Shown here in pieces: positions 3,462 through 18,570 of a DNA stretch of 20,344 nt. The notes under the pieces are model-generated. The model saw nothing but the letters and a program-made list of their open reading frames with translations, was not told where the DNA came from and made no database searches. The translations under genes were made by a program, and so were the position numbers. The stretch's first letter is position 1. Each line of letters begins with the position of its first letter. The DNA is from Komagataeibacter kakiaceti JCM 25156 (lineage in GTDB: Bacteria > Pseudomonadota > Alphaproteobacteria > Acetobacterales > Acetobacteraceae): assembly GCF_000613305.1 (NCBI RefSeq), contig NZ_BAIO01000015.1, positions 1-20,344 on the forward strand, in the 5' to 3' direction.

Positions 3462-3545
3462 TGGAGACTGTTTGAAAAAACCTGCTTCAGGAAACGCCGC
3501 CTTTGTTGAAAAAGGCGGCCCCGGAAACTTCCCCGGAACTGACAG
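3462..3545 (+). repeat. Dispersed intergenic double-hairpin repeat, copy 1 (partial)
   Basis: Contains ACTGTTTGAAAAA at its left end, the right arm of hairpin A reduced to GCTTCAGGAAAC, and an intact hairpin B: GCCGCCTTT (3496-3504), six-base loop, AAAGGCGGC (3511-3519), followed by CCCCGGAAAC. The same order of blocks is seen in the other five copies in this window. It lies downstream of the 71-aa minus-strand gene. Confidence 0.7.
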
Positions 3546-3634
3546 GGTGTTTCGGGGCGAGGGTATCCGGTTCTTGCGCAGATGACATGGTGCGCGGCCT
3601 GTTCCCGCCGGAGGTAGGCCGCCGCCCGCACAGC

Positions 3635-3666
3635 AACGGGCCGGACCCTGCTGGATCCGGCCCGTT
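3635..3666 (-). terminator. GC-rich hairpin downstream of the 71-aa gene
   Basis: A perfect 11-bp inverted repeat, AACGGGCCGGA (3635-3645) and TCCGGCCCGTT (3656-3666), with a ten-base loop, about 50 bases after the 71-aa gene's stop. It lacks a clear U-run on either strand, so termination is inferred from stem strength and position. Confidence 0.45.
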
Positions 3667-3714
3667 TCACATTGTACCCTCTGGCCCGCCGATCGGTATA
3701 TCAGCGGGACCGGA

Positions 3715-3930
3715 TTACCTGCTGCCGGTAAAAGCCTGCATGCCCGCATGCGCGCGCCGGTAAAGGCGCGTGACCTGACGGGTCAGGTCATCCTGCCCAC
3801 GCAGGGTCTGGTTATGAAAGGCGCGTACGCTGTCATGCGCGGCATAGAAGCGCCGCGTTTCACGGTCTGCTTCCAGAATAACCGTGCCAAGGAAGGTGCC
3901 GTCAATTTCAACAATATGGGATTCAAGCAT
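3715..3930 (-). CDS. Small hypothetical protein, 71 aa
   Basis: Encodes 71 residues starting MLESHIVEIDGTFLGTVI and ending LYRRAHAGMQAFTGSR. There is no signal peptide or membrane segment. The first half alternates in a way that suggests a beta-hairpin (HIVEIDGTFLGTVILEADRETRRFYA), and the second half (DDLTRQVTRLYRRAH) looks helical and basic. The pattern 'VEIDGxFLGxxI...RFYAxHxxVR' resembles small conserved hypothetical proteins I associate with acetic acid bacteria, but no function is known to me. The start is ATG with only a weak AAGG upstream. It stands alone, with a strong hairpin after it, so it is probably monocistronic. Confidence 0.55.
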   Translation of the reverse strand: MLESHIVEIDGTFLGTVILEADRETRRFYAAHDSVRAFHNQTLRGQDDLTRQVTRLYRRAHAGMQAFTGSR

Positions 3931-4571
3931 GGAAGTGCTGCCTTTACATGCCCGCGTATCATGTTGCGGGTGTGGGTCCGGCAGTATGTCCGCCGGTTGT
4001 TCTACTGGGTGCCCGCCTTCACCATGGGGGCGACGGGTGATGTACTACATCGGTGAATGTGACAGGTTCGTCCGGTTGTCTGGATCATGTGGGATCACTC
4101 TGCTCCATATTGCCGAAAGGGGTGTTCGCGGCGGATCATACGCCGTGGCTGTATCGCGTCAACCATAATAACTAAAAAAATGTGTGATAATTTATTTTTC
4201 GTAAAATTAAGTTAATTTTAGGAAAAGCCAGACTTTTAGTCCGAAGAGTTCATATAATAACATTTAATAACAATGTTTTAATATAAACTAACCTATTAAT
4301 GGAATTTCATGCGGCTTGTCCGGTCGCGTCCCTATGGAATGGTCTGGGGGCAGGATAACGGGAATGAAACCGAACGCCTGAACCTGAAAATATTCATAAA
4401 ATATGTATAATTTTAAAAATAACAATTTAATGTGTTTTATGCCCCGGTCCCATGTCCGGGGCGTGAACACATGACGGCGCAGGGATTCATCCGCTTTCAC
4501 GGGCTTTAAATACTGACTGCCCGCTGGCCATAAGGGAGCCTGCGGGCAGTATTCAGCGTGCCTGTTATGTT
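3931..4571. other. AT-rich intergenic gap with several perfect palindromes
   Basis: About 640 bases without a convincing gene. Its middle (roughly 4165-4440) is strikingly AT-rich against GC-rich surroundings. It contains inverted repeats at 4039-4051 (GATGTA-C-TACATC), 4202-4220 (TAAAATTAA-G-TTAATTTTA), 4259-4277 (AACATT-N7-AATGTT) and 4441-4462 (GCCCCGG-N8-CCGGGGC). It could hold promoters or an unannotated RNA; nothing specific can be named. Confidence 0.5.
4516..4550 (-). terminator. Likely terminator of the yceI gene
   Basis: Perfect 9-bp inverted repeat ACTGCCCGC (4516-4524) and GCGGGCAGT (4542-4550) about 20 bases past the YceI stop. In the gene's direction the stem is followed by CAGTATTTAAA, a weak T-rich tail, so this is a moderate call. 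Confidence 0.55.
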
Positions 4572-5189
4572 TCAGTCCCGCCGTTCAAAAGCCCCGGCAA
4601 TGCGCAACTCCACGTCATCGCCTACATAAGGCACATACATCTTTACGCCGAAGTCGCTACGCCTGATCGTGGCCGTGGCTTCGAAGCCGGTGGTATATTT
4701 CTTGTCTATCGCGTTGATGCCCGCCCCGATGAAATGAACCTTCAGCGTTTCGGGTTTCGTGACACCATGCAGCGTCAGGTTGCCAGTGACGACGGCATCG
4801 TTCTGTCCCGTCTGGCGTATGGCGGTGGAGACGAAGGTTGCGGCAGGGAACCTGCCGGCGTCAAACCACTGTTCGCCCTTCAGTTCCCCGGTCAGCCTGC
4901 TGCTGGTGGTCTGCACGGAATCCACCGGAATGGTGACGGACAGTTTCGAACGGGATGGCGCGCGGGTATCAAGTTCCAGCGTGCCGGAGGCATTGGAGAA
5001 AATGCCCGTGTAATTCGTAAACCCGAGATGCAGCACCGTGAATGTAACCTGCGTATGCGCGGGTTCGACGTCATAGCTGCCGGACTGCACCTGCGCCGGG
5101 CTGGTCACGACCTGTGCCGCAGCCGGGCCGACATGGGACAGGGACAGGGCAATAATCGCCAGCGGTAAGGAAGGAAAGCCGTATTTCAC
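4572..5189 (-). CDS. yceI: YceI-family periplasmic protein
   Basis: A 205-aa secreted protein of the YceI family, small lipocalin-like beta-barrels that bind isoprenoid-type or amphiphilic ligands and are often linked to acid, base or oxidative stress; the ligand here is unknown. Residues 1-25 form a signal peptide with a likely cut after PAAA, before QVV. The mature part opens with SGSYDVEPAHTQVTFTVLHLGF, the typical family start, and continues with FDAGRFPAATF and VTGNLTLHGVTKPETL (classic YceI strands), then RSDFGVKMYVPYVGDDVEL near the C terminus. Full length. The start is GTG at 5189 with GGAG eight bases upstream. A hairpin terminator follows, so it is probably transcribed alone. Confidence 0.93.
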   Translation of the reverse strand: MKYGFPSLPLAIIALSLSHVGPAAAQVVTSPAQVQSGSYDVEPAHTQVTFTVLHLGFTNYTGIFSNASGTLELDTRAPSRSKLSVTIPVDSVQTTSSRLTGELKGEQWFDAGRFPAATFVSTAIRQTGQNDAVVTGNLTLHGVTKPETLKVHFIGAGINAIDKKYTTGFEATATIRRSDFGVKMYVPYVGDDVELRIAGAFERRD

Positions 5190-5477
5190 GTAAGGATACT
5201 CCGGTCAGGATGCGTTCTGGTATCAGGGCCGGAGGTCTGGCGTTATCGGATGGATGCGGTCGGCATCAATGTATGTCCGCCCTGTCTCGCACCGGAACCG
5301 CCCCCGGCCAGTGCGCAGCACCCTCATTACCGGGATGACCGGACCCGAAAAACAACGATGATGGAAACATATGGTTTCCCATACTTTCCGCTTCGTGCCG
5401 CTGTAGGGAGGGGGCGACAGGGTGTCGCGTTGTCGGGTCGGCGCGCGGTCGTATGGTCTGTTCCCGCATTGTCAGGC

Positions 5478-5819
5478 TCAGTTCAGGCGGTGCGACTGCG
5501 GGTCGGTAATGCCGTAAGCCTGCAACATGTTATCGAACGATTTTTCAAAGACGAGACGGATACGGGGCTTGGGCCTGCCGTTTTCAAATGTATCGTCCGT
5601 TGCGGCCAGAAGCGGGCTGAGCGGGTGCATTTCGGTCATCGCACGGACCTGGGCGCGATGGCCGGTATCGGATGCGGTCATGATGGTCAGTTTCCGCGTA
5701 ACTTCCTGCAACCGTTTTTCCAGCCGCCTGGCGTACAGTTTCCATGCCTGAAAGTCGGTTTCCTTTCGTTCGGCGGCTTCTTTGTAATCAGCGTCGGATT
5801 TGAACGGATTATCAAGCAT
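5478..5819 (-). CDS. Hypothetical 113-aa coiled-coil protein
   Basis: I do not recognise this protein. It is 113 aa, without signal peptide or membrane segments. Residues ~8-45 (DADYKEAAERKETDFQAWKL then RRLEKRLQEVTRKL) are charged and heptad-like, predicting a helical or coiled-coil hairpin; a middle part (SDTGHRAQVRAMTEMHPLSPLL) and a C-terminal segment (RIRLVFEKSFDNMLQAYGI) may fold separately. The reading frame stays open upstream to 5975, but the ATG at 5819 is chosen because AGAGAGGA sits six bases before it and the upstream part is not protein-like. It lies between yceI and copA on the same strand but with large gaps on both sides, so no operon is implied. Confidence 0.65.
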   Translation of the reverse strand: MLDNPFKSDADYKEAAERKETDFQAWKLYARRLEKRLQEVTRKLTIMTASDTGHRAQVRAMTEMHPLSPLLAATDDTFENGRPKPRIRLVFEKSFDNMLQAYGITDPQSHRLN

Positions 5820-6202
5820 GTCTGATCCTCTCTGGTCAGGATTTACGCATGTGCGGAAATGTCTGTCGGCCTGTGGGGAAACATGTGGAAGCTCCGGAGA
5901 AGCAGGCCATAATATCATTGCGTGAATGTTATGCGGATTGATATTTTTTTGTTTCGTATTCAGAATTAAAAGCAATATCCGTGCCAGCCTGATGGTCGCG
6001 CCGGGGCGACGGGTTCAGGACCGATCACATCACTGTAACAGGTCGGTCCCGCAAGCCGTCGGTCTGTAACGAAAGGCAACCTGAAAAACTCTGCCCGGAG
6101 ACCATTCCACAGACCATAAGGAAATTTCCGGTAAAGCCCTTTTAAAAAGCCCCGGAAAACACGGTCTTTTTAAAAAGGCCGGCATTCCGGTGCTTTGTCC
6201 AT
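5820..6202. other. Intergenic gap between copA and the 113-aa gene
   Basis: No gene seen. It holds repeat copy 2, an inverted repeat GGACCGA (6018-6024) / TCGGTCC (6043-6049), and an AT-rich stretch near 5930-5975 that could carry the promoter of the 113-aa gene. Confidence 0.5.
6105..6195 (+). repeat. Dispersed intergenic double-hairpin repeat, copy 2 (diverged)
   Basis: Shows the shared block order: CATAAGGAAATTTCCGG, then a diverged hairpin A (AAAGCCCTTTTAAAAAGCC), CGGAAAAC, then hairpin B (GGTCTTTTT / AAAAAGGCC), and CCGG. It begins within ten bases of the copA stop. Confidence 0.6.
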
Positions 6203-8596
6203 TTATCCGGTCGCCTTCTGGTCCTGACGGCTGGATGGCGCTTTCCAGCGGTTGAGAAGGAGCGAGTTGCTGACAACGGATACCGAACTCATGGCCATGG
6301 CGGCCCCCGCCACGATCGGGTTGAGCATGCCAAAGGCGGCCAGCGGCAGGCCAAGAATATTATAGATGAAGGCAAAAAAGAGATTCTGCCGGATTTTGGC
6401 CAGTGTCGCGCGGGAGAGTGAAATGGCGTCCAGCACACTGCCCAGTTCACTTTTCATCAGCACGACATCGGCCGTATCCAGCGCAATGGCGGCGCCCGCC
6501 CCGATGGCGAAACCGACATCCGCCGCCGCCAGCGCCGGGGCGTCGTTTATGCCGTCGCCCACCATGCCCACGGTCTGCCCCTCGGCCCGGTATTTCGCCA
6601 CGCCCTTCGCCTTGTCACCGGGCAGCACGCCAGCCAGATAGTCATCCACGCCAACCTGTCGCGCCACGACCGCCGCCGCGTGCTCGTTATCTCCGGTCAG
6701 CATCACGACCCTGATTCCCGCCCTGTGTAGCGCCGCAACGGTTTCAGTCGCATCGGCGCGCAGGCGGTCGGACAGGGCGATATAGCCCAGGGCGCGCGCA
6801 TCCGCGGCCACCGCGATGACGGTCTTGCCTTCCTGCTCCAGCCTGGTGATGAGGGGGGTATCCAGCGCAAGTCCGGCCCCGGTCAGGAAACGGGGGGAGC
6901 CGAGGCGGATCAGCGCGCCTTCCATCCGTGCGGTCACGCCCAGACCCGGCAGCGCCTGAAAATCCGTAACGGTCCGCGCCGGGATTCCGGCGCTCGCGGT
7001 GTAATCGGCAATGGCGCGGGCCAGAGGATGCTCGGAATCCTTCTCCAGCGTGCAGGCGACGGCCAGCAGATGCGCGGGCTCAACGCCCGGTGCGGGCCGC
7101 ACATCGCTCACGCCCGGCTGGCCTTCGGTCAGGGTGCCGGTCTTGTCCATGATGATGGTGGTCAGTTTTTCCGCCTGTTCCAGTGCGTTGGCGTTGCGGA
7201 ACAGGATGCCCGCGCGCGCGCCCAGCCCCGTGCCGACCATGATGGCCGTGGGTGTGGCCAGCCCCAGCGAGCAGGGGCAGGCGATGACCAGAACGGACAC
7301 GGCGGAGACAAGGCTCCATGTCGCGCTGCCTGTCACCAGCCACCCGATCAGGAATGTCAGCAGCGCCAGAACCAGCACGGCGGGCACGAAAATGGCCGCG
7401 ACCCTGTCGGCCAGTCGCTGTACATGGGCCTTTGACCCCTGCGCCTGTTCCACCATGTTCACGATATGCGCCAGCGCCGTATCCGCGCCCACGCCGGTAG
7501 CCCGGATGCGCAGGGCGCCGGTGGTGTTCATCGTGCCGCCAAACACCTTGTCCGCGGCCTTTTTCAGTACCGGTAAGCTCTCCCCCGTCAGCATGGCTTC
7601 GTTCACATCGGACGCGCCATCCACAACCTCGCCATCAACCGCGATACTTTCGCCCGGCCGGACAATCACAATATCGTTCACGCGCACATCCGCGACCGGG
7701 CGGTCGGTGACCACGCCATCACTTTCCACATGTGCGACCTGGGGCTGTAGCCGCAGCAGCCTTTCAATTCCCGCGCTGGTCCTGTCGCGCGCGCGGGTCT
7801 CCATCAGCCTGCCCAGAGAGATCAGCGTGATGATGGCGACATCCGCCTCGAAATAGACAGGCTGCTTCAGGCCCAGCACCATGACGGCGGTGCTGAAGAC
7901 ATAGGTGATGCCCGTGCCCAGCACCACCAGCACATCCATGTTGGCCGAACCGCCACGCACCGCGTTCCATGCGCGCCGGTACAGGTGGCGCGCGCAGTAA
8001 AACTGCACCACCGTCGCCAGCGCGCATTGCAGCCAGTCGGGCATCATGTAGGGAGAGCCCGCGAACATCGCCGCCATCTGCGCGAAGAAGGGGAGGGACA
8101 GGGCCAGTGTCAGCACGAAGCCGTTGCGTTCCGCCCGCCATGCCTGTTCGCGCCGCGCATGTTCGTCCACGGGCAGGCTGTCATCCAGCACGGTTGCGCC
8201 AAAACCGGCTTTTTCTATCCGGGCGATAAAGGTATCCGGCCCGACAATGCCGGGCACGAAGGCGACATGCGCCCTCTGGGCCGCGAAATTTACGCTCGCC
8301 CGTGTCAGGGGAAGGCGGTTGAGGATTTTCTCGATCCGCGCGGCGCAGCTGGCGCAGCTCATGCCGGTCAGGGACAGGTCCACACTCTGTTCAGCCACCG
8401 TGAAACCGGCCTTGCGCACGGCGGCGATGACATTGGCGATGGACGCCGTGGGGCTGTCCAGCATGACCTGCGCGCGACCGGCGGCGAAATTGACCGCCGC
8501 CTTCACCCCGTCCTGACGGTTCAGGATCTTTTCGATCCGCGCGGCGCAGGCGGCACAGCTCATACCGCCGACAGGGAAGCCAAAGGTCTCGGACAC
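6203..8596 (-). CDS. copA: Copper-exporting P1B-type ATPase CopA
   Basis: A 797-aa inner-membrane ATPase that pumps Cu(I) out of the cytoplasm. Two N-terminal metal-binding domains carry GMSCAAC (Cys14, Cys17) and GMSCASC (Cys81, Cys84). Then come eight membrane segments with the actuator TGE (ending at Glu339), the transport site CPC (Cys440, Cys442) in ACPCSLGLATP, the phosphorylation motif DKTGTLT (Asp484), SEHPLARA (His523) and GDGINDAP (from 680). FIYNILGLPLAAFG and MAMSSVSVVSNSLLLNR supply the Tyr-Asn and Met-Ser-Ser residues expected of copper-type pumps. Most CopA have CPCALGLATP; here Ser replaces Ala. The start is GTG at 8596, seven bases after AAGGAG; the frame is open further upstream, but that includes the promoter. 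Unlike its neighbours, it is unbroken. Confidence 0.96.
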   Translation of the reverse strand: MSETFGFPVGGMSCAACAARIEKILNRQDGVKAAVNFAAGRAQVMLDSPTASIANVIAAVRKAGFTVAEQSVDLSLTGMSCASCAARIEKILNRLPLTRASVNFAAQRAHVAFVPGIVGPDTFIARIEKAGFGATVLDDSLPVDEHARREQAWRAERNGFVLTLALSLPFFAQMAAMFAGSPYMMPDWLQCALATVVQFYCARHLYRRAWNAVRGGSANMDVLVVLGTGITYVFSTAVMVLGLKQPVYFEADVAIITLISLGRLMETRARDRTSAGIERLLRLQPQVAHVESDGVVTDRPVADVRVNDIVIVRPGESIAVDGEVVDGASDVNEAMLTGESLPVLKKAADKVFGGTMNTTGALRIRATGVGADTALAHIVNMVEQAQGSKAHVQRLADRVAAIFVPAVLVLALLTFLIGWLVTGSATWSLVSAVSVLVIACPCSLGLATPTAIMVGTGLGARAGILFRNANALEQAEKLTTIIMDKTGTLTEGQPGVSDVRPAPGVEPAHLLAVACTLEKDSEHPLARAIADYTASAGIPARTVTDFQALPGLGVTARMEGALIRLGSPRFLTGAGLALDTPLITRLEQEGKTVIAVAADARALGYIALSDRLRADATETVAALHRAGIRVVMLTGDNEHAAAVVARQVGVDDYLAGVLPGDKAKGVAKYRAEGQTVGMVGDGINDAPALAAADVGFAIGAGAAIALDTADVVLMKSELGSVLDAISLSRATLAKIRQNLFFAFIYNILGLPLAAFGMLNPIVAGAAMAMSSVSVVSNSLLLNRWKAPSSRQDQKATG

Positions 8597-8603
8597 GGCC
8601 ACG

Positions 8604-8609
8604 CTCCTT
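8604..8609 (-). promoter_or_regulatory. Ribosome binding site that fixes the copA start
   Basis: AAGGAG in the transcript direction, seven bases before GTG at 8596. An in-frame GTG at 8602 would sit one base from it, and a TTG at 8641 lies inside the promoter, so GTG 8596 is favoured. Confidence 0.75.
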
Positions 8610-8624
8610 GCGTATTCACCGCTG

Positions 8625-8652
8625 ATTTTATACCCCCTCAAGGTATTATCAA
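8625..8652 (-). promoter_or_regulatory. copA promoter with a copper-regulator-like operator in the spacer
   Basis: In the copA direction, TTGATA (-35, 8652-8647) and TAAAAT (-10, 8630-8625) are 16 bases apart. The spacer carries the dyad ATACC-N7-GGTAT (8630-8646), which also has a G/C run. TSS would fall near 8618, giving a leader of about 22 bases. The 16-bp spacer argues against a MerR/CueR activator, which uses 19-20 bp, and the dyad resembles the TACCC/GGGTA-type sites of CsoR repressors. The regulator's identity is inference. Confidence 0.55.
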
Positions 8653-8718
8653 GAACGTCCCGATGTTTTTCTGAAAAGACGATACTGCCGCTATTGCCCG
8701 GCGGGGGCGCTCATCACT

Positions 8719-8758
8719 TCACGGAGCCGTGTATCCGTGATTGCAGTATTACGTAATA
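8719..8758. promoter_or_regulatory. Two adjacent dyads, candidate operator sites
   Basis: TCACGGA-N8-TCCGTGA (8719-8740) is a perfect 7+7 inverted repeat of 22 bp. Six bases later is the perfect 12-bp palindrome TATTACGTAATA (8747-8758). They have the form of dimeric regulator sites; no protein is assigned. Confidence 0.4.
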
Positions 8759-8890
8759 TTTCCGCGCCCGATCCTGTGTTGTCGTACACCAGACGTGAAC
8801 CTGCCATTCGCTAATATAGGGGCCGCAGAGGTTGCGGCATCCCGTTACGTGGCGGTATCCGTAACATTCAACCACCGCATTCCGCTCAGC

Positions 8891-8933
8891 CATGCCTGTT
8901 TCTTCCGGCATCCCGGCTGGACAGACAGGCATG
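8891..8933 (+). promoter_or_regulatory. Leader hairpin abutting the ribosome site of the dehydrogenase operon
   Basis: CATGCCTGT (8891-8899) and ACAGGCATG (8925-8933) form a perfect 9-bp stem, with inner CCGG/CCGG pairing possible in the loop. The 3' arm ends on the first G of the GAGAGG site used by the small-subunit gene, so folding could affect initiation. Confidence 0.4.
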
Positions 8934-8947
8934 AGAGGCGACACCAT

Positions 8948-9562
8948 ATGGCTGTAGACCGGTCGTGTTTTTCCACCAGCGTGCATCTGACCGCCCCCAA
9001 CAGCATACGGATGGCTCAGGCGCTGCGTATGTCACGCCGTGACATGCTGCTGGGCGCCATGGGGCTGGCCACCGTGGCGCTGGGCGCGAAACAGGGCCTG
9101 GCCGCGACGGTTGATGAAGACCCGGTGGCGCCGCTGTTCCTGGCCCTTTCCCAACGGCTGACGGATCGTGACACGCTGGACCCGCAGGTCGGTCACGCCC
9201 TGTACGCCGGGATCATCCACGCGGTGCCCGACCGGCGCGCGCAGATCCAGAACCTTCACGCGCTTATGGCGGGCGGCACCTTCAGCAGCGCCAGCGCGCT
9301 GGCCCGCGCGGCCGAACATGCGGACCCGGTGTTCAAGGATGTGATCCATGACATCATGACCGGCTGGTACCGTGGCGTTGCCGACCAGAAGGTCGTGGTA
9401 TACCGCTCGGCTCTGATGTTCGACATTACCAGCGACGCGGTCTACCCCAAGACCTATGCCGCCGGGGGGCCGTTCTACTGGACCCGGACCCCGCCGGAAG
9501 TGGCGGTTCCAACGGGCGAGCCTGCCCTTTCGCCTTCAAAATTCGTTGTAGAACCCACCTGA
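8948..9562 (+). CDS. Membrane-bound FAD dehydrogenase, small subunit (gluconate 2-dehydrogenase subunit 3 family)
   Basis: A 204-aa small subunit of the three-part dehydrogenases of acetic acid bacteria (sorbitol, gluconate, 2-ketogluconate and fructose dehydrogenases). It binds the flavoprotein and carries it through the Tat system. The N-terminal part has a twin-arginine motif, SRRDMLL (Ser29-Arg30-Arg31), then a hydrophobic stretch GAMGLATVALGAKQGLAA with a likely cut near residue 53. The mature part (FLALSQRLTDRDTLDP, HDIMTGWYRGV, YPKTYAAGGPFYW) fits the family. The start ATG 8948 has GAGAGG nine bases before; in-frame ATGs at residues 22 and 28 would also keep the Tat motif. It is the first gene of the operon, with the large subunit 14 bases on. 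Confidence 0.88.
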   Translation: MAVDRSCFSTSVHLTAPNSIRMAQALRMSRRDMLLGAMGLATVALGAKQGLAATVDEDPVAPLFLALSQRLTDRDTLDPQVGHALYAGIIHAVPDRRAQIQNLHALMAGGTFSSASALARAAEHADPVFKDVIHDIMTGWYRGVADQKVVVYRSALMFDITSDAVYPKTYAAGGPFYWTRTPPEVAVPTGEPALSPSKFVVEPT

Positions 9563-9576
9563 ACCCGGAGCGTCCC

Positions 9577-11211
9577 ATGCCATCTGAACAGGATCTTTCA
9601 GCCGATGTCGTCATCGTCGGCTCTGGCGTCGCGGGCAGTTCCATTGCCAATGAGCTGGCGCGGGCGGGCATTTCCGTCATCGTGCTGGAGGCGGGGCCGC
9701 GTGTCGACCGGCAGCATTTTGTCGAGAATTTCCGCAATCTGGAAAACAAGCCCTCCTATCAGGGGCCTTTTCCCTCCGTGCCATGGGCGGAGCATCCACC
9801 CAACCAGATCACGCCAAACGAGTACCTGCATACCACCGGCCCGGACGCGGAGGCCTATCAGCAGGTCTATCTGCGCATGATGGGGGGCACCACGTGCACT
9901 GGGCAGGGTGCGCATGGCGGTACCTGCCATCGGATTTCGAACTGAAGACCCGGTATGGGCAGGGGCGTGACTGGGCGCTGAAATACGACGATCTGGAACC
10001 GTTCTACTATCAGGCGGAAGTCATGATGGGGGTGTGCGGGCCGGACGCGGCGAAGGAGGATCTCGGCTCCCCACGCCGCCAGCCCTACCCGATGGAGCGC
10101 TGCCCATTTCGTACGCGGCGCAGCAGTTCCGCAAGCTGATCAGCGAAAAGACGCCCTATCGCGTGGTGCATGAACCGCAGGCGCGCAACACCCGCCCCTA
10201 CGATAACCGCCCCACCTGCGAAGGGCACAACAACTGCATGCCGATCTGTCCCATCGGGGCCATGTATAACGGCAGCTACTCCGTCTATCATGCCGAGGCG
10301 GCGGGCGCGCGTTTCGTTCCCAATGCGGTGGTGTACAAAATCGAGCGTGACAGCGCCAACAAGCGTGTTACCGCCGTGCATTATTATGACCCCGACAAGG
10401 ATCGCACCGCGTTACCGGCAAGTATTTCGTAATCGCCGCGCATTGTATCGAGACGGCGAAGCTCCTGCTGGTTTCCGCCGATGAGCAGAGCCCCGATGGC
10501 ATCGCCAACAGTTCCGGCCATGTCGGCCGGAACATGATGGACCATACGGGGGTGCAGGTCACCTTCATCAGTGGCGACAAGGCGCTGTGGCCGGGCAGGG
10601 GACCGCTTGAAACCAACGTGATCGACAATTTCCGTGATGGAAACTGGCGTAACGAACGCGGCGCCTATCTCGTGCACATGGTGGATGACAACCAGGTTGA
10701 CCTGGCCACGTCGCTTGCGATTTCCAAGGGATATGTCGGGAAGGAACTGGAGGAGCAGATCCGCTATCTCGCCTCCCATACCGTCCGGCTGTTCAGCCAT
10801 AATGAAGGGCTGGCCGACCCGCAGAACCGCCTGACGCTGAGCAGCACGTACAAGGACGCGCTGGGTATTCCGCACCCGGAAGTCTTTTATAAACTTCCCG
10901 AATATACCGTGAAAAGCTGCGAGCATACCCGTGGTCTGTTCCGGGAACTGATCGGCCTCATGCACGGCACGGACGAGCAGTGGACGCCGGGCTACTTCCC
11001 GCAGGACCATCCCGCCGGCAGCACCATCATGGGGAGCGACCCGAAGGATTCCGTGGTGGATGGCTTCTGCCGCACGCATGACCACGAGAACATGTTCATC
11101 GCGAGTTCGTCCGTCTTTTCCTCGGTTGGAACCGGCAATATCACCCTGACCGTCGCAGCACTCGCATTGCGTGTGGCCGACACGCTGAAAAAAGAACTTT
11201 CCCATGCCTGA
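9577..11211 (+). CDS. Membrane-bound FAD (GMC-type) dehydrogenase, large catalytic subunit (three apparent frameshifts)
   Basis: The catalytic flavoprotein oxidises a sugar, polyol or sugar acid in the periplasm and hands electrons to the cytochrome c subunit. After restoring three bases it is 545 aa, matching fructose dehydrogenase large subunits (~544). It shows the FAD motif GSGVAG (15-20) in DVVIVGSGVAG, then MMGGTTWHWAGCAWRYLPSDF, a C-x5-C-x3-C cluster motif (about Cys215, Cys221, Cys225; CEGHNNCMPIC) fitting a [3Fe-4S] centre, and the catalytic pair His479 (QDHPAGSTIMG) and Asn522 (GTGNITLT). Breaks lie near 9896 (TGGCAC read TGCAC), 10100 (CGCCTG read CGCTG) and 10407 (ACCCGC read ACCGC). 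The start has GGAG six bases upstream. The substrate cannot be read from sequence; gene order small-large-cytochrome matches sorbitol and 2-ketogluconate dehydrogenases. Confidence 0.9.
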
Positions 11212-12525
11212 TGTTGCACACAAAATCCTGTGGTCGGTTCTGGGGGCGGGAGTAGGGCTGGCTGTTCTGTCCACGGAACCCGCCCGCGCGGATGAGCCTT
11301 CCGCCGAGCTTCTGGCGCACGGCAAATATATCGCCACGGCGGGGGACTGCATTGCCTGCCATACCAAACCCGGCGGCCAGCCCTTTGCGGGCGGGCTGAG
11401 CATCACGACGCCGATGGGTGATGTCATTTCAACCAACATCACCCCCGATCCCGACCACGGGATTGGCAAATATACGCTACAGGATTTCGAGAAGAGCGTG
11501 CGCCACGGCATCCGCCGGGATGGTAGCCGCCTTTACCCGGCCATGCCTTATGTCTCCTATTCCGGCATGACGGATGACGATGTCACGGCACTGTATGCGT
11601 GGTTCATGCATGACGTGAAACCCGTGGCCGAAACCCCGCCCGCCACGGCGCTCAATTTCCCGGCCAACCTGCGCATCACCATGGCGGTGTGGAACCTTGT
11701 GGCGGGTGAGAGCGACCCGGAAACGGGGGACGCCGCGACGTTCGACAAGCTGCGGCGGGGAAAATACATCGCCCATGCGCTGGCGCATTGCGGCACCTGC
11801 CATACGCCCCGCAACGTCATGCTGAGCGAGAAAGAGGACAGTTATCTGGCCGGTGCGTCCCTGCTGGGGTGGTACGCGCCTGATATTACATCCAGCAAGA
11901 CCAGCGGCATCGGGGACTGGAGCGAGGATGAACTGGTGGCCTATCTGCGCACCGGTCATATCGACGGGCTGAGCCAGGCGGCCGGACCGATGGGGAGGTG
12001 GTTGAGCACAGCACCAGCCACCTGACCGATACGGACCTGCACGCCCTGGCCGCCTATATCCTTCAGGTTCCGGCCAAGGAGGACGATGCCGAACACGCGC
12101 CCCGCGCACGTATCGGGCAGGCCCTGAATGTGCCGGACATCCGTTCGGGCGATCTTACCCGCATCGACAATCTCGATCCGATGGACGGCAAGGGCGTGTA
12201 TGACGCCAACTGCGCCTCCTGCCATGGTGATAACGGGGCGGGGTCGAGCAACCGCTATGTACCTTCCCTGTTCCATAACGCCGTTGTCGGGTCCGGGCAT
12301 CCGGATAACCTGATCATGACCGTGCTGGAGGGTGTGGACCGGACCGCGAATGGCGTTCATGCCTATATGCCCGGCTTTGGCCAGAATTCCGATGTGCAGC
12401 GCCTGAGCAACACGGAAGTCGCGGCCGTGGTCAATTATGTGACCAAAACCTTCGGCAGTGGCGATCATGGCGTCACACCCGAACAGGTCGCCACGCAGCG
12501 TGGGGAAACGCCTAAAACGCCCTGA
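11204..12525 (+). CDS. Membrane-bound dehydrogenase, triheme cytochrome c subunit (one apparent frameshift)
   Basis: The electron-exit subunit anchors the complex and passes electrons to ubiquinone. After restoring one G it is 440 aa. A signal peptide (residues 1 to about 29, ending EPARA) is followed by three heme c sites: CIACH (49-53), CGTCH (196-200) and CASCH (337-341), the three-heme layout of this family; GDCIACHTKPGG and HCGTCHTPRN are typical. Its ATG overlaps the last eight bases of the large-subunit gene, so the two are translationally coupled. The break is in a G run at 11992-11995: reading five G instead of four changes GPMGRWLSTAPAT-stop into GPMGEVVEHSTSHLTDTDL and keeps the third heme domain. 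Repeat copy 3 follows the stop closely. Confidence 0.92.
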
Positions 12526-12534
12526 ACTACCCAG

Positions 12535-12697
12535 AGGCCGATTGAAAACAACTGATTGATAAAAAACAATAAAAGTTTTTGGGTGCCGCCTTTTTTCAAA
12601 AAGGCGGCGTTTCCCGAAGCTTTTTGAAAAAAGCTTTACCGAAAACGTCCCTAAAATTTAGGGAATGTCCCAAAGGCCGGTTTTTCAAACAGTTCCT
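12535..12697 (-). repeat. Dispersed intergenic double-hairpin repeat, copy 3 (longest and best preserved)
   Basis: On the plus strand it runs: TTGAAAACAACTGATTGAT end; hairpin B, GCCGCCTTTTT (12585-12595) / AAAAAGGCGGC (12598-12608), a perfect 11-bp stem; GTTTCCCG; hairpin A, AAGCTTTTT (12617-12625) / AAAAAGCTT (12628-12636); a third hairpin CCCTAAA-A-TTTAGGG (12649-12663); and an end TTTTTCAAACAGTTCC. The two ends are imperfect inverted copies around TTGAAAA, giving a MITE-like outline of about 160 bases. It starts 10 bases after the cytochrome c stop. Confidence 0.75.
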
Positions 12698-12726
12698 TGC
12701 ACCGGGACGCGCCTGCTCCTTATGAT
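12697..12726 (+). promoter_or_regulatory. Promoter-like pair ahead of the PAP2 gene
   Basis: TTGCAC (12697-12702) and TATGAT (12721-12726) with an 18-base spacer. The -35 starts exactly where repeat copy 3 ends. The TSS would be near 12733. Confidence 0.4.
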
Positions 12727-12858
12727 GGGTGCGTCCTCGGGGCTTTCCTGCCGGGGCGTGTAACCTCCGCGCCTGTCATGCGTTAGTGCGTATTGCTGGC
12801 GATCGTGCCGGTCATATGCTATGCGGGATGGGTAGGTGGCAGGAAAATACGTTTCGTT

Positions 12859-13448
12859 ATGATACGTTTCATCACCGATTTCGCCGATCAGGGCGACATT
12901 CTGCCGGTCGTGGCCACGGTTGCGGCCGTTATGGTCTGGCGGGAGTGGCGGCGGGGCGCTTCCGTCTGGCTTGGCACGGTTATCCTGACGCTGGCGCTCA
13001 TGCTGGTCCTGAAAATTATGGGCCTGTATTATGCCGTATTCATGCAGGCCCCCGTTTTCAGCCCCAGTGGCCATGTCGCGTCGGCCTGCCTTGTCTATGG
13101 CAGCCTGTTGATCATGATGGGGCGTGAGGCGTTTATCGGCCTTCCCTCCCTTACGATGCTGCCCCTGATGGCCGTGGCGGCTGTCATGGCCTATACCCGG
13201 CTTGTATTACACGCCCATTCGGTGTCCGAGGTTGTAACCGGCGCATGATCGGATCAATAGCCGCCGTGGTGCTGGGGTTCAAATGCGGCCCGGTGCCGAA
13301 GGCGTTGTGGCTTTACCTGTTGCCCGCAGTGGTCGGGAGCGCCTTCCTGTTTCATGGATGGCATTTGGGGGCGGAAGTGGCCATCAGGAACCTGGTCCTG
13401 TCTGAAGGAAGTTCGGTAAGTCATTTCGTATATAAAATATTTGTATAA
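12859..13448 (+). CDS. PAP2-like phosphatase-superfamily membrane protein (one apparent frameshift)
   Basis: A small multi-pass membrane protein resembling PAP2 phosphatases (lipid phosphate or undecaprenyl-pyrophosphate phosphatase-like). Visible are PSGHVAS (second PAP2 motif) and YTRLVLHAHSVSEVVTG, which fits the third motif as R-x5-H-x3-E, with Glu in place of the usual Asp. The first motif (K-x6-R-P) is not recognisable, so catalysis is uncertain. The frame breaks near 13242: restoring one G turns VVTGA-stop into VVTGGMIGSIAAVVLGF and adds the last hydrophobic segments. The start is uncertain: ATG 12859 gives the family-like MIRFITDFADQ, while TTG 12793 would add a hydrophobic N terminus; neither has a good ribosome site. 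About 197 aa with the ATG. Confidence 0.7.
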
Positions 13449-13494
13449 TATCTCTTTTTTTGTATTTCATAATCTGATCCCCTTCAGGAAACAT

Positions 13495-13620
13495 CCCATA
13501 AATCATAAGAAAGTTTTTGGTGAAGCTTTTTTTCAAAAAGCTTCGGGAAACGCCGCCTTTTTGAAAAAGGTAGCACCCAAAAACATTTATTATTCATTAT
13601 CAATACACTGTTTCTACTTC
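13495..13620 (+). repeat. Dispersed intergenic double-hairpin repeat, copy 4
   Basis: Reads AATCATAAGAAAGTTTTTGG, then hairpin A, GAAGCTTTTT (13522-13531) / AAAAAGCTTC (13535-13544), CGGGAAAC, then hairpin B with a decayed right arm (CGCCGCCTTTTT / AAAAAGGTAG), CACCCAAAAAC, and an end TTATCAATACACTG similar to the TATCAATCAGTT end of copies 3 and 5. Confidence 0.75.
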
Positions 13621-13884
13621 CATCATGTCATTTCCAGCAGATGGATAGTGCATTTTATGCCGGACGAGGCGGCATGATCACAGGGCATTACCTGTAACAT
13701 ATCAGATTTCAGAAGATCAGACGCGGTAATGTGTGGCGTCAAACGATCTTCATACCGTCGCCTTGGCATGTTTCATGCCTGCTCAAGAAAGCTGACAGTA
13801 AAGACCCAGATCCATTTCTTTGTAAGATCAGTATATTCGTAATCCGCATCGGGACAGGAAGCCAGGTGCCCCCGGAATACGAAA

Positions 13885-13925
13885 CCCCTCACCCATATCA
13901 GGATCGTCCTGATGCGGGTGAGGGG
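13885..13925 (-). terminator. Strong terminator of the aldehyde dehydrogenase gene
   Basis: A long stem: CCCCTCACCC (13885-13894) pairs with GGGTGAGGGG (13916-13925), and inside it ATCAGGA (13897-13903) pairs with TCCTGAT (13907-13913) around a three-base loop, with one two-base mismatch. In the gene's direction it is followed by TTTCGTATTC. It lies about 50 bases after the stop. Confidence 0.8.
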
Positions 13926-13973
13926 CTGGTCCGTCGCTGGTTGACCCGGACGGGATCAACCAGAAGCAGGGAT

Positions 13974-15364
13974 TTAGAACGGTGCGTCGATATCGACGAC
14001 ATCAATCAGCTTGTGATTGACGAATTCCTTGATGCCAAGGCCAATCAGTTCACGGCCATAGCCGGAACGGGCCACGCCACCAAACGGCAGGTCCGCCTTC
14101 ACCATGGTCGGGTGGTTGACATAGACCATGCCGGTATAGATCTGTTCGGCAACCTTCACGCCGCGCTTCGTGTCCTTCGTGAAGACGGAGCCACCCAGCC
14201 CGAACGGGGAGTCGTTGGCGATGCGGATGGCGTCCGCCTCGTCCTTGGCGCGGTAAAGCTGCGTGACGGGACCGAAGAACTCCCACAGGCGGGCTTCATT
14301 GTCCTTGTGCAGGTTGGTCATGAGCAGCGGACGGAAGAAGGCCCCGTCATTGGGCACCGGCGCGCCGATGGTCTCGACCACCGCGCCGTGCTTCTTGGCT
14401 TCCTCGACCTGTGCCGCCAGTTCATCAGCCGCCTTCTGCGAGGACAGCGGGGCCAGCGTCGTGGTCGGGTCCATCGGGTCACCGGCCTTCAGTTCGGCCA
14501 CACCCTTCTTGTACAGTTCGACAAACCGGTCATAGACCGCGTCCACCACGATCATCCGCTTGGCCGAGACACAGACCTGGCCGGCATTCCAGTGGCGACC
14601 GAACACCGCCCACTTCACCGTCTTTTCCAGATCCGCGTCTTCCAGCACGATGAAGGCGTCGGAGCCGCCCAGTTCCATCGTGGATTTCTTGAGCGCCTTG
14701 GCCGCGACACCGGCCACGATCGCCCCGGCGCCTTCGGAACCGGTCAGCGCCACGCCACATACGCGCGGATCGCTCAGGATCACTTCGGTATGGTGGCGGG
14801 CCGCATACAGGTTGCGGAACGCGCCCTTGGGCAGGCCGGCTTCCTGCATCAGGCTGTCAAACGCGGCGGCGCACTGCGCACGTTGGATGCGTGCTTGAGC
14901 AGCACCGTGTTCCCGGCGGAAAGCTGCGGCGCGATGATGCGGGCGATCTGGTAGTAAGGGAAGTTCCACGGTTCGATCGCGAAAACGATGCCCTGCGGCT
15001 GATGGACCAGAACGGCCTTGCCTTCCTTCGGGTCGGCAACGGGCAGCGTTTCGGGGGCCAGCAGGCGTTCGGCATTCGCGGCGTAATATTCAAAGATTTC
15101 CGCCGAAAGTTCGGTTTCCAGCTTTGCTTCCCCGTAGAGCTTGCCCATTTCAAGGGTCAGCAGGCGGGCGTATTTGTCGATATCACGACGCAGAATGGCC
15201 GCCGCCTTCGTCATGACCTTCGCGCGTTCGGCAAAGGAGACGTGACGCCATGCCTTGAAGGCTTCATAGGCGTCGGTCAGGGCGGTCTGGATTTCCTGAT
15301 CAGTTGCTTCGGGGAAGGTTTTCAGCTTCTCGCCAGTATAGGGGTTGGTCGTTGTATAAGCCAT
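13974..15364 (-). CDS. NAD(P)-dependent succinate-semialdehyde-type aldehyde dehydrogenase (one apparent frameshift)
   Basis: A cytoplasmic aldehyde dehydrogenase, most like the Sad/YneI group that oxidises succinate semialdehyde to succinate; other aldehydes are possible. After restoring one base it is 463 aa, the usual length. Visible are PQGIVFAIEPWNFPYYQI (cofactor-side motif), ALTGSEGAG, ELGGSD with the general base Glu231, NAGQVC with the nucleophile Cys265 (34 residues apart, as expected), WEFFGPVTQLY, NDSPFGLGGSVF and FGGVARSGYGREL. ELGGSDAFIVLEDADLE and GQVCVSAKR are closest to the YneI pattern. The break is near 14878, where restoring one base gives KHASNVPQCAAAFDSLMQEAG. Start ATG 15364. 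It stands alone between a clear promoter and a strong terminator. Confidence 0.92.
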
Positions 15365-15394
15365 GGACGGGTCTGTTCCTGTATCGTTTGGTCA

Positions 15395-15422
15395 AGTATA
15401 TATTTCGCGCGCGGGCGTGCAA
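15395..15422 (-). promoter_or_regulatory. Promoter of the aldehyde dehydrogenase gene
   Basis: In the gene's direction, TTGCAC (15422-15417) and TATACT (15400-15395) with a 16-base spacer; the TSS would be near 15388, giving a leader of about 24 bases. An AGGA lies about 12 bases before the ATG, a weak site. Confidence 0.5.
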
Positions 15423-15861
15423 GAATCGTTTTTGCTACCACCAACGGACATAACCTGCAAAAGTTCATTTGAACACAGGGGGCATAAACGGCCCATATAC
15501 GGGAGAAAACCCGTCCTTTTTGCCGTTTTTCTGGTAACCCGTCTTGCCGGTGGCGTGAAACCCGCAAGATCGCCGCGCCTGATATAACACATTATTTAAT
15601 AACCACCGGCGCGTGCGGTGAAATCCGTGGGAATGCGGAGAGGAAGCGCATCCGGTCATGACGGCATGAAATTGGCGCTTTTTTATGGCAATGCCCGAGC
15701 GTGGCGCACGGGCGCTGTGGCCCGGAGCGCTCGACTGTGGAGAGGCCGTTGGGCGGCGCCGGTTTGTGCGTTTTCAGACATCTGGCAGGGAAGTGGGGCA
15801 GGGGAACCATCCGCAAAGTCGGCGGAAGCGGTCCGTCGCCAGATTTCGGAGCAGGTTTATC

Positions 15862-15990
15862 AGGAAGTTGTTTGAAAATAACTGATTGATAAAATTAGGT
15901 GTTCTGAACGCTGCCTTTTTTCAAAAAACTTCCCCCGAAACTTCCTGATTATTTTTGCGGAATGTCCCTGAACAGGCTTTTCAGGCAGCC
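15862..15990 (-). repeat. Dispersed intergenic double-hairpin repeat, copy 5 (internally deleted)
   Basis: It shares both outer parts with copy 3: GTTTGAAAATAACTGATTGAT at the left and GGAATGTCCC further right. In the middle, the left arm of hairpin B (GCTGCCTTTTTT) runs directly into the right-arm type sequence of hairpin A (CAAAAAACTTCC), as if recombination between the similar T/A loops removed the section between. Confidence 0.6.
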
Positions 15991-16339
15991 TCCTGTCGCG
16001 GCCCTGCTTCATTGCCTCCCACAATACATCTGGCCCGGATCTGGGGCGGCGTAGTCCTGTGCGGAACCTGGCACATTTCTTGCGCTGTCAGAATTACAGC
16101 GGGGTCCGGATGCGGCAGTTGGGTGTTCAGGCAAAGGGCGGGTCCAAAGGCTCATATGATCCGGATGATGCATAAAGGGTGATTGCCACAGGCAGGCGTG
16201 AATGGGGTGGAGGTCCGGATGATGACGCTACATGATCGGCATGGATGTTATCGCTCCTGATAAAGTTGTAAATGGGGGGATATGACCTGGCATCCATGTC
16301 GCGGCGCGGAGGAATGGATCGGATCAATTCATAAATTGC

Positions 16340-16370
16340 ATTGCGATTTGTTCTCATTCGTGTTTATGCT
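16340..16370 (+). promoter_or_regulatory. bfd promoter overlapped by a Fur-like site
   Basis: TTGCGA (16341-16346) and TATGCT (16365-16370) are 18 bases apart. The 19 bases at 16340-16358 (ATTGCGATTTGTTCTCATT) overlap the -35 and spacer and end in TTCTCATT, a typical half of Fur boxes. Iron repression of bfd is known in other bacteria; here it is inferred. Confidence 0.5.
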
Positions 16371-16400
16371 GGATTCACATTTTATGGGTGAGATGGATAA

Positions 16401-16622
16401 ATGTTTGTCTGCTCTTGTAATATGCTGACGGATGCGGATGTGGAGAAGGCCGTACGTAATGGCGCGGTCCGGCCGAAGGAAGTCTATGAATCCAAGGGTT
16501 GCCGTGCGCAGTGTGGCAACTGCGTGCCGGGCGTGGTGTGCATTCTGCGGCAGCTCGCCCGGCAGGGATGCATGACCGTGGCGGAGACCGCCCACCTGTC
16601 CGGTAACCTGCAACCGACCTGA
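16401..16622 (+). CDS. bfd: Bacterioferritin-associated ferredoxin
   Basis: A 73-aa [2Fe-2S] protein that donates electrons to bacterioferritin to release stored iron. The ligands are exactly spaced: Cys4-x-Cys6, then 31 residues, then Cys38-x2-Cys41 (MFVCSCN at the start and KGCRAQCGNC later), the diagnostic C-x-C-x31-C-x2-C of Bfd rather than of plant-type ferredoxins. Two further Cys (34 and 47) flank the second pair. Full length for the family. The ATG at 16401 puts the first pair at residues 4 and 6, as usual; the ribosome site is weak (GAGATGG). No bacterioferritin gene is next to it. The Fur-like site upstream fits induction under iron limitation. Confidence 0.93.
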   Translation: MFVCSCNMLTDADVEKAVRNGAVRPKEVYESKGCRAQCGNCVPGVVCILRQLARQGCMTVAETAHLSGNLQPT

Positions 16623-16660
16623 ACCGGGGGCGGAGTCCGCTCTGCTTTACGGTCAATAAA

Positions 16661-16688
16661 AAACGGCACCAGGTGAAGGGTGCCGTTT
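16661..16688. terminator. Shared terminator between bfd and the symporter
   Basis: A 10-bp perfect stem, AAACGGCACC (16661-16670) and GGTGCCGTTT (16679-16688), with an 8-base loop. On the minus strand it continues into TTTTTT, a classic terminator for the symporter transcript; on the plus strand the T run is only three, weaker for bfd. Confidence 0.75.
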
Positions 16689-16787
16689 GAAATGCTCAGG
16701 ATCAGGGGCGGGGCTGCCGCCCGCATTCGCATGGCCCGTAGGCCGTGGACTGAGGGGCTATCGGAAAAGCCCGGCACAGTGAATGCC

Positions 16788-16880
16788 CCACGAATCATAA
16801 GAAAGTTTCTGGTGAAGCTTTTTCCAAAAAGCTTCAGGAAGCGCCGCCTTTCCGAAAAAAAGGCGCGCCCGGATTTTAAA
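16788..16880 (+). repeat. Dispersed intergenic double-hairpin repeat, copy 6
   Basis: Reads AATCATAAGAAAGTTTCTGG, then hairpin A, GAAGCTTTTT (16814-16823) / AAAAAGCTTC (16826-16835), perfect with a two-base loop, CAGGAAGC, then a decayed hairpin B, CGCCTTT (16845-16851) / AAAGGCG (16859-16865), and CGCCCGGATTTT. Nearly identical to copy 4 over its first half. It begins just past the symporter stop. Confidence 0.75.
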
Positions 16881-18397: not shown

Positions 18398-18570
18398 GAC
18401 GGCCGTTCCGACTTCCATGCTGCCCAGATCAGGACGGATGTTACGGGAACCCAGGCGAGCTGGTACCAATAAAAGAACGGGAAGCCGAACAGCACCGGAT
18501 CGTGCCGGTTATAGAGCGGCACCCACAGGAGCCCGGCAAAGGGCAGCAGGAGGAATATGGCTTTTTTCAT
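18394..18570 (-). CDS. DUF3311 small membrane protein, symporter partner
   Basis: A 58-aa protein with two hydrophobic segments: KAIFLLLPFAGLLWVPLYN and FFYWYQLAWVPVTSVLIWAAW. The central WVPLYNRHDPVLFGFPFFYW is the hallmark of DUF3311 proteins, which are almost always encoded just before an SSS symporter and are thought to be its small accessory subunit. Start ATG 18570 has AAGAAG nine bases before it; the open frame upstream (to 18642) is not family-like. The stop overlaps the symporter start by four bases. Confidence 0.88.
   Translation of the reverse strand: MKKAIFLLLPFAGLLWVPLYNRHDPVLFGFPFFYWYQLAWVPVTSVLIWAAWKSERPS

What the first reader, a model, noticed from the sequence alone, without database searches (positions are those of the whole stretch)
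3462..16880. Six copies of one undescribed-looking intergenic repeat built of two hairpins
Copies at 3462, 6105, 12535, 13495, 15862 and 16788 share a block order: (CATAAGAAAGTTT)-TGG-hairpin A (GAAGCTTTTT/AAAAAGCTTC)-CGGGAAAC-hairpin B (GCCGCCTTTTT/AAAAAGGCGGC)-CACCCAAAAAC. Copies 3 and 5 also share ends (GGGACATTCC and TATCAATCAGTT-TTTTCAA), with imperfect terminal inversion around TTGAAAA, a MITE-like outline of about 130-160 bases. Six copies in 13.5 kb, all outside genes, is a high density. I do not know a named family for it.
Basis: partly seen in the sequence, partly recalled or inferred. Interest (0 to 1): 0.8.

Follow-up and report, generated by a model that had tools for sequence, protein, structure and literature searches.

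The report
Mobile hairpin element behind stop codons
The six repeats are copies of a small mobile DNA element that vinegar-making bacteria carry in large numbers; it sits mostly just behind the ends of genes, sometimes exactly on a stop codon, where its hairpins probably mark where messages end.

Summary
The repeat is real: a profile built from 16 copies in other genomes recovers all six places, though copy 5 has lost most of both hairpins and copy 2 is diverged. The full element is about 162 bp: 15-bp ends (GAGACTGTTTGAAAA) with a TNA target duplication (32 of 66 full copies have identical 3-mers, 11.8 expected), around a core of two palindromes inside a third, outer stem. It is a MITE-type element with IS5-like ends. 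In 2.3 Mb of three K. xylinus-labelled genomes there are 282 copies. Of 276 placed, none is centred in a predicted gene, 147 lie between convergent genes (44 expected), and the median distance to a stop codon is 9 bp. In 22 of 66 full copies the target triplet is a gene's stop codon. The core alone, without the ends, is kept at the same convergent gene pairs in 8-9 Gluconobacter species, often inverted, and its stems covary across genera. Best reading: a transposon-spread, orientation-independent 3'-end signal, probably a bidirectional terminator. Termination is not shown, and K. xylinus orthologues show no purifying selection. No named family was found (nine paper searches; Rfam).

The parts
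3464..3532 (-). Copy 1: perfect 15-bp terminal repeat GAGACTGTTTGAAAA at 3464-3478, remnant of hairpin A, intact hairpin B at 3496-3519
   Evidence: sequence; profile hit 3462-3530, model 40-108, E 5.9e-9; fold z -3.54
6084..6184 (-). Copy 2, diverged, ending 18 bp from the stop codon (at 6203) of the copper-ATPase-type gene on the minus strand
   Evidence: profile hit E 1.9e-12; gene call 6203-8602; Pfam E1-E2_ATPase and HMA; fold z -1.89
12534..12696 (+). Copy 3, full length 163 bp with both ends (3 and 2 mismatches to GAGACTGTTTGAAAA); begins 8 bp after the stop at 12525 of the cytochrome c frame; flanking 3-mers differ (CCA/TTG)
   Evidence: profile hit E 2.1e-40; ends measured; gene call
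12569..12583 (+). Copy 3, outer-stem 5' arm ATAAAAGTTTTTGGG
   Evidence: sequence; part of it pairs with the 3' arm in the fold
12585..12608 (+). Copy 3, hairpin B GCCGCCTTTTTTCAAAAAGGCGGC
   Evidence: sequence; fold
12616..12637 (+). Copy 3, hairpin A GAAGCTTTTTGAAAAAAGCTTT
   Evidence: sequence; fold
12638..12649 (+). Copy 3, outer-stem 3' arm ACCGAAAACGTC
   Evidence: sequence; fold
13480..13614 (-). Copy 4: outer arms, hairpin A (13522-13544) and hairpin B (13552-13574); between the PAP2-type gene (plus) and the aldehyde dehydrogenase gene (minus), i.e. convergent, 231 and 359 bp from the called frames
   Evidence: profile hit E 1.5e-34; fold z -4.49; gene calls; Pfam
15864..15992 (+). Copy 5, decayed: both ends recognisable, the hairpins reduced to one fused half-hairpin; lies in a divergent gap
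   Evidence: profile hit 15869-15991, E 1e-6; fold z 0.00; sequence
16758..16873 (-). Copy 6: hairpin A (16814-16835), altered hairpin B (about 16841-16867); ends 13 bp from the stop at 16887 of the minus-strand gene, convergent with the small plus-strand frame 16422-16622
   Evidence: profile hit E 1.3e-21; fold z -1.95; gene calls

Best explanation
A non-autonomous transposable element (MITE type) of acetic acid bacteria that carries a gene-end signal. Shown: 15-bp inverted ends, a 3-bp TNA target duplication, and a core that pairs as an outer stem around two palindromes. Shown: copies sit behind stop codons and between convergent genes, and the stop codon itself (TAA or TGA, a TNA triplet) is used as target about twice as often as other TNA sites, so an insertion there duplicates the stop and spares the gene. 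Shown: the core occurs in opposite orientations at orthologous sites, and it is kept without transposon ends at the same convergent gene pairs across Gluconobacter. Inferred: an IS5-type transposase moves it in trans; in RNA the core ends messages from both sides (A-rich arm, stem with two hairpins, T-rich arm CTTTTATT) as a bidirectional terminator and/or a block to 3' exonucleases; because it reads the same from both sides, inversion is tolerated; after insertion the ends decay while useful cores stay.
For: Ends and target: 66 distinct full copies, 32 with identical flanking 3-mers (11.8 by cross-pairing), 30 of those 32 being TAA, TTA, TGA or TCA; 2- and 4-mers not above expectation. Stop codon as target in 22 of 66; 22 of 58 copies with a gene-like stop within 100 bp, against 20.5% of TNA sites (p 0.0018). 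Position: 276 copies, 0 centred in genes, 147 convergent (44 expected), 16 divergent (77 expected), median 9 bp to 3' ends and 141 bp to 5' ends, 104 of 113 tandem copies nearer the upstream stop; the same in G014 alone (87 of 162 convergent, 26.8 expected; 82 of 147 convergent gaps hold a copy). Tandem median 18.5 bp after the stop against 80.9 simulated. Structure: 49 cores of several genera, 98.1% of cells paired, 35 two-sided changes against 9.4 in shuffles (0 of 500 reach it), 1 to 15 when slid. Retention: three Gluconobacter loci in 8, 9 and 9 species, mean core identity 0.905, 0.943, 0.962; core above both flanks in 16 of 28, 22 of 36 and 32 of 36 pairs; inverted relative to G. oxydans in 5, 4 and 3 species. 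28 of 29 Gluconobacter copies have frames of at least 100 codons converging from both sides within 51 bp.
Against: Orthologous same-orientation K. xylinus copies diverge more (hairpins 8.6-9.5%, arms 12-14%) than their flanks (5.2%) or element-free tandem and divergent intergenic DNA (5.0-5.3%), and two-sided pairing changes between them (2) do not exceed slid controls (1-3). Within K. xylinus the outer stem shows no covariation excess (23 against 20.9). Wobble pairs do not clearly follow the transcribed strand (119 G-U against 101 A-C in tandem copies; 131 against 146 for the nearer stop in convergent copies). Canonical terminators are not significantly rarer where the element is present (37 of 137 against 26 of 69 convergent gaps, p 0.15; 9 of 118 against 77 of 564 tandem, p 0.09). 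The element passes a simple intrinsic-terminator test in only 60 of 196 copies in one direction and 7 in the other. A fourth Gluconobacter locus (3 species) is not better kept than its flanks (0 of 3 pairs). No transcript data were available.
Confidence: 0.6

Rival explanations
1. A purely selfish MITE. Insertions in genes and promoters are weeded out, insertions at stop codons and between convergent genes survive, and the hairpins are only the element's own body. No gene-end function.
For: K. xylinus copies evolve faster than surrounding DNA with no pair-preserving excess between orthologues; canonical terminators are not significantly replaced; a TNA target that can be a stop codon gives harmless insertions.
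Against: Survival alone does not readily predict a tandem median of 18.5 bp against 80.9 simulated, retention of the end-less core at three convergent loci across 8-9 Gluconobacter species at about the identity of the flanks or above it, or the covariation across genera.
Confidence: 0.25
2. A DNA-level site: the palindromes extrude as cruciforms or bind a protein (nucleoid, recombination, replication or polymerase-collision role between convergent genes), and the transcript does not matter.
For: Opposite orientations in 8 of 53 callable K. xylinus orthologous pairs and in Gluconobacter suggest the DNA palindromes are recombinationally active; the T/A stems of the hairpin tips are nearly invariant; no transcribed-strand bias of wobble pairs.
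Against: Tight placement behind stop codons in tandem as well as convergent gaps points to the transcript; palindrome-driven inversion needs no dedicated function.
Confidence: 0.1
3. A REP/BIME-like family moved by a REP-associated tyrosine transposase, not by a DDE transposase.
For: High copy number, extragenic position, hairpins and gene 3' ends.
Against: 15-bp terminal inverted repeats and a 3-bp target duplication fit a DDE element. A REP-associated transposase was not searched for.
Confidence: 0.03

Closest known systems
IS5-family insertion sequences with TNA targets (family and IS1031-like group recalled, not tested) and MITEs derived from such elements
   Same: ends GAGACTGTTTGAAAA resemble those of an 884-bp IS with a 278-aa transposase frame (GAGCCTGTTTGGAAA, 13 of 15; a relative, L269, has 14 of 15 at one end and 12 of 15 at the other); TNA duplication
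   Different: the body is a conserved three-stem structure that also exists without the ends; a shared interior with the IS was not looked for systematically
[quoted passage not shown] seen in passages of the review PMC10969869)
   Same: small dispersed repeat with terminator-like structure
   Different: other phylum; the passages seen mention no stop-codon target, convergent-gap enrichment or inversion
REP/BIME, ERIC, Correia/NEMIS, RUP (passages of PMC2229807; otherwise recalled)
   Same: high-copy extragenic hairpin repeats; ERIC and NEMIS are reported to affect message stability or processing
   Different: the two-hairpin-in-stem plan and the placement behind stop codons are not in the passages seen
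Paired DNA-uptake sequences acting as terminators in Neisseria and Haemophilus (recalled, no call)
   Same: a repeated sequence used as inverted pair behind genes
   Different: uptake sequences are not transposon-borne

Membership tests
MITE (bacterial miniature inverted-repeat element) | terminal inverted repeats | tested here: met
   GAGACTGTTTGAAAA at both ends with at most 4 mismatches each in 66 distinct copies; backwards-pattern control 0 in 3 genomes
MITE (bacterial miniature inverted-repeat element) | target-site duplication | tested here: met
   32 of 66 identical 3-mers against 11.8 expected; TNA beside one end in 56 and beside the other in 41 of 66
MITE (bacterial miniature inverted-repeat element) | short, non-coding, multi-copy | tested here: met
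   50 of 66 are 160-163 bp; 282 copies of at least 30 bits in 2.3 Mb; absence of coding capacity inferred from length and structure
MITE (bacterial miniature inverted-repeat element) | clean empty site in a close relative | tested here: inconclusive
   8 of 59 G013 copies located in G014 lack more than 60 bp there, but none shows a clean one-TNA junction at about 95% identity
IS5-family derivative | autonomous element with the same ends | tested here: inconclusive
   nearest IS ends 12-14 of 15 bases; in the listing of ends with 0-1 mismatch in 3 genomes the only facing pair I see 600-2500 bases apart belongs to two neighbouring copies of the element (G013:C52)
Intrinsic terminator | G+C-rich stem directly followed by a T tract | tested here: inconclusive
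   simple test met in 60 of 196 copies forward and 7 reverse; arms AATAAAAG/CTTTTATT seen in Gluconobacter copies such as L317
Intrinsic terminator | RNA ends at the site in vivo | not testable with these tools
   no transcript data
Any Rfam family | match at gathering score | tested here: not met
   0 matches in the window; 6 sub-threshold hits in 12450-13650
REP/BIME with REP-associated transposase | REP tetranucleotide and linked tyrosine transposase | not tested
   not searched

The most novel reading that the evidence does not exclude
A mobile element that supplies a bacterial genus with its gene-end signals: it inserts into stop codons without harming the gene, delivers a direction-independent terminator, and the terminator core, free to flip in place, is then kept by selection across a whole genus after the transposon ends are gone.
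Probability: 0.4. Interest if true: 0.82.

Novelty: new variant of a known kind. Interest (0 to 1): 0.62.

Why it matters
Where new terminators come from is little known, and a 2024 review of prokaryotic MITEs calls it conceivable that they form terminators (passage of PMC10969869). Here easily grown, food-associated bacteria hold many copies in what look like successive states: intact element on a stop codon, element with decayed ends, end-less core fixed between convergent genes. The claim can be tested directly with 3'-end sequencing and single deletions. Komagataeibacter is also the main producer of bacterial cellulose (recalled), so an abundant native terminator would be useful.

Tried and rejected
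Clean empty sites: 59 of 92 G013 copies and 13 of 35 G006 copies could be placed in G014; most are shared and the differing sites are not clean. Autonomous partner with identical ends: transposase loci sought by PF13340 in 5 genomes and by the 278-aa frame in 60; only near-identical ends found. L131, first suspected as partner, has only one such end. The transcribed-strand test was inconclusive. The ortholog compensation test showed no signal. The terminator replacement test was not significant. The plasmid search with a 30-base end gave mostly chance hits. A first divergence table mixed inverted pairs in and gave higher core values (14-16% in stems and arms); it was replaced on same-orientation pairs.

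Corrections on re-check: one search listed 67 full copies; one was the same copy read on both strands, so (66 copies) replaces it and its p 9e-4 becomes 0.0018.

Limits: gene calls are from a home-made codon-usage caller; the stop-codon test uses open frames of at least 120 codons for the copies and called genes for the background. G013 and G014 share many insertion sites, so the 276 copies are not independent; one search gives each genome alone. Contigs were not a random sample: many were chosen because earlier searches had hits there, and four small G013 stretches because they held or adjoined ends. One search scored 2 candidates per genome and at most 17, so absences there are weak. Six of 282 copies lacked a gene on one side and were dropped before the count of 276. 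Alignment A1 used 46 of 51 listed cores (5 with long linkers or awkward ends left out; L341 was cut short) and 3 of 6 window copies. Some cores were cut unevenly. Species names of G handles come from named loci that lie in them.
Full report
What is in the window. The window is from an acetic acid bacterium; its aldehyde dehydrogenase is closest to that of Komagataeibacter saccharivorans among the loci fetched (96% of residues; 82-88% of bases over the syntenic stretches), and no genome of its own is held. The six repeats exist. A profile built from 16 copies in other genomes finds all six window places with E-values from 1e-6 to 2e-40. The copies are unequal: 3 is full length, 1 and 4 keep strong structure, 6 has a changed hairpin B, 2 is diverged, and 5 is a wreck whose fold is no better than shuffles.

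Anatomy. The full element, written in one orientation, is: end GAGACTGTTTGAAAA, a linker, an arm ATAAAAGTTTTTGGG, palindrome B GCCGCCTTTTTTCAAAAAGGCGGC, a short variable linker, palindrome A GAAGCTTTTTGAAAAAAGCTTC, an arm ACCAAAAACTTT, a second linker, and the inverted end. The arms pair with each other, so the core is a three-way junction. In the consensus the tips of A and B are reverse complements of each other.

Mobility. Among 66 distinct full-length copies 50 are 160-163 bp long; 32 have identical 3-mers on both sides (11.8 expected from cross-pairing), 30 of them TAA, TTA, TGA or TCA; 2-mers and 4-mers are not above expectation. A smaller first set gave 15 of 40 against 4.9. Such ends with a TNA duplication fit the IS5 family; that TNA is typical of its IS1031-like group is recalled. 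An 884-bp IS (L156) with a 278-aa frame matching PF13340 has ends GAGCCTGTTTGGAAA, 13 of 15 matches. Relatives are flanked by TAA/TAA (L268) or TTA/TTA (L269); the L156 copy itself by TTA/TGA. An autonomous element with identical ends was not found.

Copy number and spread. In 2.3 Mb from three genomes there are 282 copies of at least 30 bits: 162 in 1,368,400 bases of G014, 88 in 763,806 of G013, 32 in 163,820 of G006; the reversed control has 0. That extrapolates to roughly 400 per genome (inference; not a random sample). Only 22 of 282 reach both ends of the profile, while model positions 41-113 are covered in 232-274 copies. In the family, 20 of 299 genomes have a match at E 1e-6 or better, in several of them to the core only (2 candidates scored per genome). 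Of 47 genomes reached through named loci, 17 match, one of them (G. thailandicus) only in flanking sequence of the query; nine Gluconobacter species have 4-6 matches each, counting some flank and opposite-strand matches, while G. frateurii, G. japonicus, G. cerinus, most Acetobacter and both Bombella have none at that threshold.

Position. Of 276 copies with a gene on both sides, 0 are centred in a predicted gene; 147 are in convergent gaps (44.1 expected from repeat-free intergenic length), 113 in tandem gaps (155.2) and 16 in divergent gaps (76.7). Median distance to 3' ends is 9 bp (407 ends), to 5' ends 141 bp (145 ends); 104 of 113 tandem copies are nearer the upstream stop. Each genome alone shows the same: G014 87 convergent of 162 (26.8 expected), G013 45 of 83 (11.7), G006 15 of 31 (5.4); in G014, 82 of 147 convergent gaps over 30 bp hold a copy, against 65 of 485 tandem and 10 of 179 divergent gaps. 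Full-core tandem copies lie a median 18.5 bp after the stop, against 80.9 for random placement in the same gaps (n 76); in convergent gaps the nearer-stop distance is 9 against 13.6 (n 113), a weak difference because those gaps are short.

Stop codons as targets. In 22 of 66 full copies the trinucleotide directly beside the element is the stop codon (17 TAA, 5 TGA) of an open frame of at least 120 codons; no other distance from 0 to 100 holds more than 3. Among 58 copies with such a stop within 100 bp the share is 38%, while the stop codon makes up 20.5% of TNA sites in that range at 945 gene ends without an element; p 0.0018. So the preference is about twofold, not exclusive. Insertion there duplicates the stop and leaves the gene whole.

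The core without ends. In Gluconobacter the core stands between convergent frames: 28 of 29 copies have frames of at least 100 codons ending within 51 bp on both sides; of 11 copies from other genomes, 7 do within 98 bp. Three loci (between HlyD-type and prolyl-oligopeptidase genes; EPSP-synthase and mannitol-dehydrogenase genes; UPF0093 and a short-chain-dehydrogenase gene) are shared by 8, 9 and 9 species. Mean pairwise core identity is 0.905, 0.943 and 0.962; left and right flanks, largely coding, 0.915/0.789, 0.935/0.898 and 0.913/0.873; the core exceeds both flanks in 16 of 28, 22 of 36 and 32 of 36 pairs. The short linker between the hairpins varies, arms and hairpins much less; the G. 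kondonii copy at locus 1 is decayed. A fourth locus in 3 species does not exceed its flanks (0 of 3 pairs). Across 49 cores of several genera, 98.1% of pair cells form, with 35 two-sided changes against 9.4 in shuffles (0 of 500 reach it); slid controls give 1 to 15.

Inversions. Relative to G. oxydans the inner segment has the opposite orientation between orthologous flanks in 5 of 8, 4 of 9 and 3 of 9 species. Between K. xylinus genomes, 8 of 53 callable orthologous copies are inverted, 45 are not, 3 could not be called (the 56 pairs are those of similar length among 72 placed, and all 8 are G013 against G014). The flipped copies also differ in sequence, so replacement by another copy is not excluded. 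Template switching between the inverted arms is the simplest cause (inference).

Against a function. In K. xylinus, same-orientation orthologous copies diverge by 8.6-9.5% in hairpins, 12-14% in arms and 16% in the linker; flanks 5.2% (39 pairs). Element-free tandem and divergent intergenic DNA diverges by 5.3% and 5.0%; convergent element-free DNA by 19.9%, but from 5 gaps only. Two-sided pair-keeping changes between orthologues number 2, slid controls 1 to 3. Covariation among 196 K. xylinus-group copies exceeds independence in hairpins (35 against 9.1 in B, 7 against 2.2 in A) but not in the outer stem (23 against 20.9). Canonical terminators are somewhat rarer beside the element, not significantly. 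Hence many Komagataeibacter copies look like freely decaying insertions, while the Gluconobacter cores look constrained.

Verdict. The family is a MITE-type element (confidence about 0.9). That its core works at gene 3' ends is supported by position, retention and covariation (about 0.65), with bidirectional termination the likeliest mechanism (about 0.5) and a 3'-exonuclease block next. No step of expression was measured.

Literature. Paper searches listed no description of this repeat as far as titles and abstract starts show. Passages found by word search were read in PMC6528568, PMC4686929, PMC6382973, PMC2229807 and PMC10969869; none of them names it. The library lacks most subscription papers.

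Noticed in passing
window 9577-11211, 11204-12525, 13974-15364, 16887-18418: Several genes (GMC-type dehydrogenase, cytochrome c, aldehyde dehydrogenase, the large minus-strand gene at 16887-18418) appear as two or more adjoining frames, which suggests frameshifts from sequencing errors or decay. Described only.
   Followed up: no
L346 768-1032: In Acetobacter estunensis a copy of the element is followed within a few bases by a stretch that begins like the 884-bp IS of L156.
   Followed up: no
L317, L326, L333 and alignment A1: The two-base tips of the hairpins sometimes change together in a complementary way (TC/GA, AC/GT, CC/GG) at Gluconobacter locus 1, but not regularly at loci 2 and 3; kissing loops or template switching could explain it.
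   Followed up: partly
G013 versus G014 and G006: The number of near-perfect ends (0-1 mismatch) differs strongly between similar genomes: 64 in G013, 24 in G006, 22 in G014, as if the element had been active more recently in G013.
   Followed up: no
K. xylinus copies, hairpins A and B: One-sided changes between orthologues lean to wobble pairs in hairpin B (35 of 57) and to mismatches in hairpin A (30 of 51), an unexplained strand asymmetry.
   Followed up: no
L356 (G154): A distant copy has hairpin A rebuilt with a longer G+C stem while the T/A tip is kept.
   Followed up: no
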